Shown here: positions 61,493 to 62,941 of the stretch, one piece after another
How the letters are laid out: each line of letters begins with the position of its first letter
Position numbering within the stretch: position 1 is the first letter of the stretch
Source of the DNA: Marisediminitalea oceani
Lineage (GTDB): Bacteria; Pseudomonadota; Gammaproteobacteria; Enterobacterales; Alteromonadaceae
Length of the DNA stretch: 64,000 nucleotides
Assembly: GCF_003731635.1 (NCBI RefSeq)
Contig: NZ_RCUA01000086.1
Location: forward strand, 1-64,000
Direction of reading: 5' to 3'
Translations under genes and position numbers: made by a program
The notes under the pieces: model-generated
Told to the model about the DNA's origin: nothing
Seen by the model: only the letters and a program-made list of their open reading frames with translations
The model's database searches: none

Positions 61493-61634
61493 AGTTTTTC
61501 CTCCAAATTTAGATAATCTCTACATATCACTACGTCGAGTTTACTGCAGCCGGATTGAATCACAGTCATAATACACTTATGAGCCATCCTCATTAATAAA
61601 CTTTACCGGTTACCCTGGTGTTCAGAGAAATAGT
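61493..61634. promoter_or_regulatory. Divergent region between the cupin operon and lysR
   Basis: 142 bases separate the two start codons, the normal arrangement for LysR-type control of a divergent operon. A clear T-N11-A box was not identified with confidence. Confidence 0.4.
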
Positions 61635-62525
61635 ATGCGAGAAAATTACAATGAAATCCTGGCATTCATTGCCGTAGCCCGCGAGCGGAGCTTTACCCGT
61701 GCCGCCGCCAGACTGGGCGTAACTCAGTCTGCCCTGAGCCATTCCATGCGTGCCCTGGAAGAACGTTTAGGCATACGGCTGCTGACCCGTACTACCCGAA
61801 ATGTTTCAACCACAGAAGCCGGTGAGCGCATACTGCAGCGTATAGCGCCGCGCTTCGAGGATATCGACACCGAGCTGGAAATGCTTTCTGAACTCACCAG
61901 TAAGCCGGCAGGCCTGGTGCGTATTAGCTGTAGCGACCACGCGGCTTTTAATCTGGTATGGCCTAAGTTGTCGCCGTTGCTGGAGGAATACCCGGACATA
62001 CAGTTAGAAATCAACGTCGATAATGGCTTTACTAATATAGTGTCGAGCCGTTTTGATGCCGGAATTCGCCTTGGTGAAGCGGTTGAAAAAGACATGATTG
62101 CCGTTAGAGTGGGCCCGGCCATGAGAATGGCTATGGTTGCCACGCCTGACTACCTGGCGCAGCATGGAACCCCCACCTCACCGGAAGAGCTTACCGAGCA
62201 TAAATGTATCAGCCTGAGACTGATTTCTGCCGGCCGGGTGTACGACTGGGAACTCGATAACGGCGAGCGTCAGGTTAAGGTTAAATCCAAAGGCCAGGTC
62301 ATATTTAATCATCCGGCGTTAATCTGCAAAGCCGCGCTGGAAGGCTTCGGCCTGGCATTTTTGCCGGAAGATATGTTCGCTGCGGCCCTGGCTGAGGGCA
62401 AACTTATCCGCGTGATGGAAGAATGGTGTCAGCCCTTCCCAGGTTATCACCTGTACTACCCCAACCGTAATAACCACTCACCCGCCTTTGCCGCTGTAAT
62501 TGAACGCTTGCGCTATCGGGATTAA
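61635..62525 (+). CDS. LysR-family transcriptional regulator
   Basis: A 296-residue regulator with an N-terminal winged helix-turn-helix (FTRAAARLGVTQSALSHSMRALEERLGIRLLTRTTR) and a C-terminal PBP2-type effector-binding domain. The TTRNVSTTEAGERIL stretch and VRISCSDHAA match the CrgA/PA0477-like branch. It is divergent from the cupin-CMD operon and probably controls it in response to an aromatic or organic-acid effector. The start follows AGAGAAAT. Confidence 0.9.
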   Translation: MRENYNEILAFIAVARERSFTRAAARLGVTQSALSHSMRALEERLGIRLLTRTTRNVSTTEAGERILQRIAPRFEDIDTELEMLSELTSKPAGLVRISCSDHAAFNLVWPKLSPLLEEYPDIQLEINVDNGFTNIVSSRFDAGIRLGEAVEKDMIAVRVGPAMRMAMVATPDYLAQHGTPTSPEELTEHKCISLRLISAGRVYDWELDNGERQVKVKSKGQVIFNHPALICKAALEGFGLAFLPEDMFAAALAEGKLIRVMEEWCQPFPGYHLYYPNRNNHSPAFAAVIERLRYRD

Positions 62526-62639
62526 TGAACGCTATTCATTACCGCATTGCAATTTTGTCGCTGACATTGGCCAGGGCATTAATGGTATAAATAATACAAT
62601 ACTTGCACAGTAGCTAAGTTTTCCGGGTGAGGCAGAATC

Positions 62640-62847
62640 TTTTTTCGCAGCCCAACCCCAGGCAGTTGGTATGACATGGTCAGGAACTGCCTGTCCTCCT
62701 TTTCACGAAGCGGTTATCCATCGGGCATTTGCCTACTCAGCGGGATATCTCGGGCCCAACCGCTTCGTTACGCTACATGTGCCCCTGTATGCTGCAGTTT
62801 AAGCATATGGACTTTTTGGGAAGCCTGGTGCTTCCCGTTTTTTTTGC
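62640..62847 (+). ncRNA. Candidate structured small RNA with its own terminator
   Basis: Three stem-loops lie in order: AGGCAGTT/AACTGCCT (62660-62667 with 62685-62692), an 11-bp perfect stem ACGAAGCGGTT/AACCGCTTCGT (62705-62715 with 62758-62768) enclosing smaller pairings, and the terminator GGGAAGC/GCTTCCC (62818-62836) followed by eight T. A possible -10 (TATAAA) lies at 62586-62591. It does not resemble 6S, 4.5S, RNase P, tmRNA or CsrB as I know them. Boundaries and family are unknown. Confidence 0.45.
62818..62845 (+). terminator. Rho-independent terminator of the candidate small RNA
   Basis: A 7-bp perfect stem GGGAAGC/GCTTCCC with loop CTGGT is followed by G and eight T. It is on the plus strand, about 290 bases after the lysR stop, so it either ends a small RNA or a long lysR 3' untranslated region. 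Confidence 0.85.
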
Positions 62848-62893: not shown

Positions 62894-62918
62894 AAAAAAA
62901 CCCCGCCGAAGCAGGGTT
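62894..62918 (-). terminator. Terminator of ssb
   Basis: The minus strand shows AACCCTGC / GCGGGGTT around the stable loop TTCG (one G-T pair), followed by a T run, 23 bases after the ssb stop. Confidence 0.92.
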
Positions 62919-62941
62919 TGTAAAATAAGCATACCGTAGAC

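What the first reader, a model, noticed from the sequence alone, without database searches (positions are those of the whole stretch)
62640..62847. Possible new structured small RNA between lysR and ssb
Two perfect stems and a textbook terminator lie in 200 bases of otherwise non-coding DNA, with a TATAAA upstream. The terminator is about 290 bases from the lysR stop, longer than a usual 3' end, and no known RNA family fits.
Basis: partly seen in the sequence, partly recalled or inferred. Interest (0 to 1): 0.6.

Follow-up and report, generated by a model that had tools for sequence, protein, structure and literature searches.

The report
Orphaned leader RNA of a lost gene
A stretch that looks like a new small RNA gene appears to be the regulated start and the end of a messenger RNA whose protein-coding middle was lost, and its folded shape seems to have been kept since, so it may show how a bacterial small RNA can arise.

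Summary
The stems, TATAAA and terminator are real and fit no Rfam family. The window is Alteromonas. In A. lipolytica the same lysR is followed by a short-chain dehydrogenase (SDR) gene: the window's stem 1 lies in that gene's 5' leader, and its last hairpin and terminator in the 3' UTR. The window, G078 and G081 lack SDR there. LysR, cupin, CMD and SDR also cluster on Caballeronia and Bradyrhizobium plasmids, so loss is likelier than gain. A LysR-type dyad flanks lysR on both sides; one more genome match lies in a flagellin gene. The leftover unit predicts a closed ~245-nt RNA, and shorter versions in G078 and G081. Outside stem 2, window and G078 differ at 3 of 185 sites, two forming one compensated pair, against 63 of 428 at 4-fold sites; with the diverged stem-2 loop the contrast is weak (20/238, p = 0.02). 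So: a structured RNA, probably made, originating as an SDR mRNA without its coding region. Transcription, Hfq binding, targets and function are untested, and four genomes are too few for formal covariation.

The parts
61635..62525 (+). lysR: LysR-type regulator, presumed activator of the unit
   Evidence: Pfam HTH_1 and LysR_substrate; activator role inferred
61577..61596 (-). second copy of the dyad (TTAATGA-N7-TCATAA) in the lysR/cupin divergent promoter
62522..62541 (+). dyad TTAATGA-N7-TCATTA containing T-N11-A, presumed LysR operator; overlaps the lysR stop
   Evidence: same arms in all four genomes that have this lysR and the leader; one of three matches in the genome; binding untested
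62586..62591 (+). TATAAA, presumed -10; start inferred near 62598
   Evidence: sequence; kept in G078 and G081, not in A. lipolytica, which has TACCAA
62598..62845 (+). inferred non-coding transcript, about 245-250 nt
   Evidence: transcription not tested
62605..62614 (+). P0, 5' arm of the closing helix
   Evidence: pair probabilities 0.99-1.00 for the 8 pairs read
62625..62658 (+). P1 hairpin; pair 62628-62655 is U-A here, C-G in G078 and G081
62659..62693 (+).
62694..62704 (+). C/U-rich strip UCCUCCUUUUC, predicted unpaired; possible seed (hypothesis)
   Evidence: mean unpaired 0.99; in the window and G078, not in G081 or A. lipolytica
62772..62782 (+). P0, 3' arm; likely spans the joint CTACAT|GTGC between leader and 3' UTR
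   Evidence: exact joint inferred
62785..62810 (+). P3 hairpin, counterpart lies in the SDR 3' UTR in A. lipolytica
62812..62845 (+). U-rich stretch, intrinsic terminator stem and T8
62898..62919 (-). separate terminator-like site, read as ssb's own

Best explanation
An ancestor carried a LysR-cupin-CMD-SDR cassette beside ssb. LysR drove SDR from a promoter directly behind its own gene; the SDR mRNA had a folded 5' leader (P0, P1, P2) and a 3' UTR with a hairpin (P3) and a terminator. The SDR coding region was then lost, probably once, which joined leader to 3' UTR. Shown by comparison: the parts and their counterparts in A. lipolytica, and the absence of the gene in three genomes. Inferred: LysR still switches the promoter, polymerase starts near 62598 and stops at 62845, and the ~245-nt RNA folds into a closed multi-branch structure. 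Most likely it now works as a LysR-dependent small RNA: the exposed C/U-rich strip would pair with Shine-Dalgarno-like sites of target mRNAs, perhaps helped by Hfq at the U-rich terminator end. That last step is a hypothesis without a test.
For: Counterparts of both halves on either side of an intact SDR in A. lipolytica; no SDR at E <= 1e-60 in G000, G078 or G081 and the same joint CTACAT-GTGCCCC in all three; LysR, cupin, CMD and SDR clustered on two distant plasmids; dyads flanking lysR; closed fold in all three (z -3.60, -5.49, -4.17); 3/185 differences to G078 outside stem 2 against 63/428 at 4-fold sites, p = 1e-7; one compensated pair among these three changes (0.36% of random trials), arisen on the window's branch because G078 and G081 share the other state; fewer changes at paired (11/97) than unpaired (21/73) sites against G081, p = 0.005; Hfq encoded.
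Against: No RNA data. Counting the diverged stem-2 loop, the unit differs at 20/238 sites plus 7 gap columns, only weakly below 4-fold sites (p = 0.02), and 62522-62600 (most of the operator-promoter stretch) at 8/79, no less than they do (p = 0.38). One change in the stem-2 arm breaks a pair in G078, and three of ten changed paired sites with a readable partner are broken in G081. Shuffle controls are not passed (120/500, 181/500); RNAalifold's covariation term is +0.81. The proposed seed is not in G081. In the G081 MAG lysR and cupin have lost their N-termini and the promoter between them. Kinship of the plasmid LysRs with this one was not tested, and two of four SDR regions opened show no CMD or cupin.
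Confidence: 0.55

Rival explanations
1. Inert scar: the origin is as above, but the transcript, if made, has no function and is fading.
For: Gene lost; stem-2 loop and the DNA behind the terminator diverge fast (16/31 and 17/42 plus gaps); promoter stretch not specially conserved (8/79); regulator broken in the G081 MAG; seed not shared with G081.
Against: 3/185 differences outside stem 2 against 63/428 at 4-fold sites, and a compensated pair that arose after the loss.
Confidence: 0.27
2. Small RNA first: the RNA is the older state, and in A. lipolytica an SDR gene was inserted between its leader half and its 3' half.
For: Three of the four genomes lack the gene; SDR found in 1 of 59 genus genomes as close as this (four others match at 43-49% identity).
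Against: SDR belongs with LysR, cupin and CMD on distant plasmids, so a chance insertion of just this gene at just this place is unlikely; in A. lipolytica the leader closes on itself before the ribosome-binding site, as a cis leader would.
Confidence: 0.1
3. Nothing but the 3' end of lysR mRNA: a long 3' UTR with a late terminator.
For: No other terminator-like site was listed between the lysR stop and 62785; read-through into the unit is possible.
Against: Does not explain the dyad and TATAAA, nor the SDR leader homology.
Confidence: 0.06
4. Stem 1 is a DNA operator (35-bp dyad) rather than an RNA element.
For: A dyad in intergenic DNA beside a regulator gene.
Against: One inner pair reads A-U, G-U and G-C across genomes: the G-U step keeps RNA pairing but breaks DNA symmetry. 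A better operator candidate is at 62522-62541.
Confidence: 0.02

Closest known systems
3' UTR-derived, Hfq-dependent sRNAs such as OppZ of Vibrio cholerae (PMC7398697, passages read)
   Same: 3' end taken from an mRNA 3' UTR with the gene's own terminator; regulation inherited from the gene's promoter
   Different: those come from an intact mRNA (OppZ by RNase E cleavage); here no coding region is left and the 5' leader is part of the RNA
Cis-acting structured 5' leaders (riboswitch-like leaders; general knowledge)
   Same: the homologous leader in A. lipolytica is folded and closes just before the SDR ribosome-binding site
   Different: in the window no gene follows before the terminator; no ligand or regulation known; no Rfam match
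LysR-type promoter with T-N11-A box, such as PltR's pltL promoter (PMC3382589, passages read)
   Same: palindrome with T-N11-A; PltR's box lies at -74 to -53, this one at about -76 to -57 from an inferred start
   Different: drives what seems to be a non-coding unit; binding untested
Aln1a-c sRNAs of A. macleodii Te101 (PMC5864184, passages read)
   Same: intergenic sRNAs of the same genus
   Different: those are three CsrA-binding sRNAs kept across species; this unit is linked to one rare cassette. Sequences were not compared
sRNAs arisen from decayed genes or pseudogenes (recalled, no paper read)
   Same: a non-coding RNA left after a gene is lost
   Different: here the coding region is gone while leader, 3' UTR and terminator remain

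Membership tests
any Rfam 15 family | score at or above the family's gathering score | tested here: not met
   (window); at E <= 5 below threshold in A. lipolytica leader and nothing in G081
Hfq-dependent trans-acting sRNA | own promoter and a detected transcript | not testable with these tools
   only a TATAAA and a LysR-type dyad in the sequence
Hfq-dependent trans-acting sRNA | intrinsic terminator with long U run (recalled feature) | tested here: met
   62818-62845, T8; U-rich stretch before it
Hfq-dependent trans-acting sRNA | Hfq present in the genome | tested here: met
   PF17209, E = 1.8e-29; binding not testable
Hfq-dependent trans-acting sRNA | conserved seed pairing with mRNA targets | not tested
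   UCCUCCUUUUC predicted unpaired, absent from G081; no target search made
cis-acting 5' leader or riboswitch | lies directly before a gene it controls | tested here: not met
   window: terminator follows, next gene ssb is on the other strand. Position met in A. lipolytica; control untested
structured RNA conserved by covariation | compensatory changes beyond shuffled controls | tested here: inconclusive
   2 pairs in P2 and 1 in P3 changed on both sides, but 120/500 and 181/500 shuffles do as well; 4 of 29 pairs, with covariation term +0.81; one compensated pair window/G078
LysR-type controlled promoter | T-N11-A dyad upstream of the start, also in the regulator's own promoter | tested here: met
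   in A. lipolytica and G081 the second copy did not match the pattern; start inferred, binding not testable
small-protein mRNA | a reading frame kept across relatives | tested here: inconclusive
   the ATG at 62671 opens 43 codons in the window and a similar end (LHVPLYAA) is in frame in G081, but G078's loop puts it out of frame; no clear ribosome-binding site by eye

The most novel reading that the evidence does not exclude
A bacterial regulatory RNA born in one step by loss of a coding region: a LysR promoter, a formerly cis-acting folded leader and the gene's own 3' UTR and terminator were fused into a stand-alone RNA that keeps the cassette's regulation but now acts in trans, its closing helix using bases from both sides of the joint.
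Probability: 0.3. Interest if true: 0.75.

Novelty: new variant of a known kind. Interest (0 to 1): 0.5.

Why it matters
The birth of a bacterial small RNA is seldom caught with its steps still visible. Here one relative still has the complete gene and three genomes have the emptied transcript, so the change can be read base by base, the probable regulator is known, and part of the RNA seems to have stayed under selection without its gene. The leader in A. lipolytica is in addition a candidate unknown cis-regulatory RNA of an SDR gene. If the RNA proves inert, the case is still a useful warning that a good fold, promoter and terminator can be the remains of an mRNA.

Tried and rejected
Known RNA family: four Rfam searches, nothing at threshold for this unit. 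Stem 2 as a mobile repeat: no second copy in the own genome at E <= 1, and the arm pattern at no other place in 60 genomes (exact arms only, so G078-like variants with a longer mismatch would be missed, and G078 was not among the 60). attC-like site: compared by eye with a recalled consensus, no fit, no call. P2 as a widespread element: 5 of 59 genus genomes at E <= 0.1, four of them this locus and one weak (E = 0.06); 2 of 394 in the order, the window and one hairpin that looks like an ordinary terminator. DNA relatives on plasmids: none. SDR remnants at the joint: only matches with E of 0.4 or more. Papers: searches were read as listings (12-15 rows each, 6), and the four on sRNA origin listed no case that by title or abstract opening is of this kind; that is no proof of absence. 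Three papers were seen as passages.

Mended slips: the G081 and G062 rows were on the wrong strand; G081 was redone with L079, G062 was dropped (its 74% lysR stands without cupin, CMD, SDR or ssb in the stretches held). The CMD codon count was out of frame and was redone. Alignment A2 misplaces the A. lipolytica terminator loop, so the terminator was not pair-counted; A3 misplaces G081's P2 arm and was not used for counts. The G081 counts rest on two separately aligned pieces and leave out 62698-62772. The segments with few differences were chosen after the structure was known; the count with the stem-2 loop is given too.

Full report
WHAT WAS CLAIMED. All are present. The region folds better than its shuffles: z = -3.60 from 62600, -2.33 from 62640. 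No Rfam family reaches its threshold there.

WHERE IT LIES. The window belongs to a 5.0-Mb genome whose relatives with this lysR include named Alteromonas records. lysR is divergent from a cupin and a carboxymuconolactone decarboxylase (CMD) gene and convergent with ssb. A DNA search of 60 genomes with the intergenic region gave mostly matches to the ssb-terminator end; one matched stem 1, in G002, about 150 bases behind the same lysR. G002, G078 and G081 correspond to the records of A. lipolytica JW12, MAG P03SWT1Cbin.13 and MAG SRR3933375_bin.11 (stretches compared exactly).

THE KEY COMPARISON. In A. lipolytica lysR is 86% identical, but ssb lies 2.3 kb away and an SDR gene follows lysR. 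The stretch before SDR corresponds to the window's dyad, leader and stem 1; the stretch behind the SDR stop corresponds to the window's GTGCCCC, P3 and terminator. The window, G078 and G081 have both parts joined, with no SDR at E <= 1e-60 in the genome. The joint CTACAT-GTGCCCC is the same in the three, which suggests one event; its exact place is inferred.

LOSS OR GAIN. SDR and CMD queries hit 111 and 118 plasmid records (20 of each listed, three records in both lists). Two opened regions hold LysR, cupin, CMD and SDR in one cluster: Caballeronia grimmiae p3 and Bradyrhizobium barranii pCC829_1. Two others, Achromobacter and Cupriavidus, show neither CMD nor cupin in the stretch read. In 295 sampled family genomes SDR (E <= 1e-75) was found in 1 and CMD (E <= 1e-60) in 2 (the sample is partial). 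I read this as an acquired cassette that lost SDR in one branch.

THE PROMOTER. TTAATGA-N7-TCATTA lies at 62522-62541 and in all four genomes, the arms unchanged and the N7 variable. With TCATWA the pattern has three places in the genome: this one, 61577-61596 in the lysR/cupin promoter, and a flagellin gene; the reversed control pattern gave one match per strand. T-N11-A within a palindrome is the usual LysR-type box; PltR's lies at -74 to -53 (PMC3382589, passages). With TATAAA at 62586 the start is guessed at 62598 and the dyad at -76 to -57. Against: A. lipolytica has TACCAA in place of TATAAA, and its lysR/cupin promoter did not match the dyad pattern; in the G081 MAG that promoter and both N-termini are gone.

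THE RNA. 62598-62846 is predicted at -92.1 kcal/mol, with closing helix P0 (62605-62614 with 62772-62782), P1, P2 (stem 1), stem 2, P3 and terminator. G078 has the same plan; G081 lacks stem 2. P0 probabilities are 0.98-1.00 in all three; z = -5.49 and -4.17 for the relatives. The A. lipolytica leader alone (143 nt from an assumed start, -50.6 kcal/mol) also closes with a helix, of other sequence, before the ribosome-binding site, and has the same P2. The closed leader may therefore be an old cis-element of the SDR mRNA.

SELECTION AFTER THE LOSS. Window against G078: 3/117 differences in 62601-62717, 1/90 in 62756-62845, 16/31 plus 7 gap columns in the stem-2 loop 62718-62755, 17/42 plus 9 behind the terminator, 8/79 in 62522-62600. 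4-fold sites: lysR 26/148, cupin 7/77, ssb 8/83, CMD 22/120; lysR/cupin promoter 13/142. The body without the loop (4/207) is below each (p = 1.9e-7, 0.011, 0.006, 2.4e-7, 0.004); with the loop (20/238) it is only weakly below the pooled 63/428 (p = 0.02), and 62522-62600 is not (p = 0.38). Leaving out 62705-62768, window and G078 differ at 3 of 185 sites; two are the P1 partners 62628 and 62655, U-A here, C-G in G078 and G081. Three random changes make a compensated pair in 0.36% of trials. As G078 and G081 share C-G, the change arose on the window's branch, after the loss. The one change in the stem-2 arms breaks a pair in G078. Against G081, 11/97 paired and 21/73 unpaired sites differ (p = 0.005); of ten changed paired sites with a readable partner seven keep pairing and three do not. 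Formal covariation stays inconclusive: three distinct rows, 120/500 and 181/500 shuffles as good, covariation term +0.81, and P1 of A. lipolytica does not fit the common P1.

HOW IT MAY WORK. Inferred: LysR with a ligand activates the promoter; the RNA ends in a U-rich stretch, a stem and T8, as Hfq-bound sRNAs do (recalled), and Hfq is encoded. UCCUCCUUUUC between P2 and stem 2 is predicted unpaired (0.99) and could pair with Shine-Dalgarno sequences; it is shared with G078 but not G081, so it would be recent. No target search was made. A coding role is not supported: the frame from 62671 is not kept in G078, although its end is in frame in G081.

VERDICT. Whether it is a working sRNA or a fading scar needs RNA data.

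Noticed in passing
L079:2926-3789 (G081 MAG): lysR starts at residue 34 and cupin keeps only residues 127-154: a deletion has fused the two divergent genes head to head and removed the promoter between them (or the assembly is wrong).
   Followed up: partly
window 62705-62768: Stem 2 is present in the window and G078 and absent from G081 and A. lipolytica; its arms are nearly identical in both while the loop is about half different, as if the inside had been replaced.
   Followed up: partly
L080:2960-3108: The SDR leader of A. lipolytica is itself a candidate new cis-acting RNA, a closed structure with P2 ending before the ribosome-binding site.
   Followed up: partly
L080:36-464: An ORF that looks by eye like an IS200-type transposase lies beside CMD in A. 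lipolytica, which would fit an acquired cassette.
   Followed up: no
G034:C33 and G034:C35: Two ssb copies of the same score on two contigs of one MAG, possibly an assembly duplicate.
   Followed up: no
DNA behind ssb in L031, L034, L038-L041: The neighbour behind the ssb stop differs among genomes although ssb is 95-100% identical, as if this side of ssb took up different inserts.
   Followed up: no
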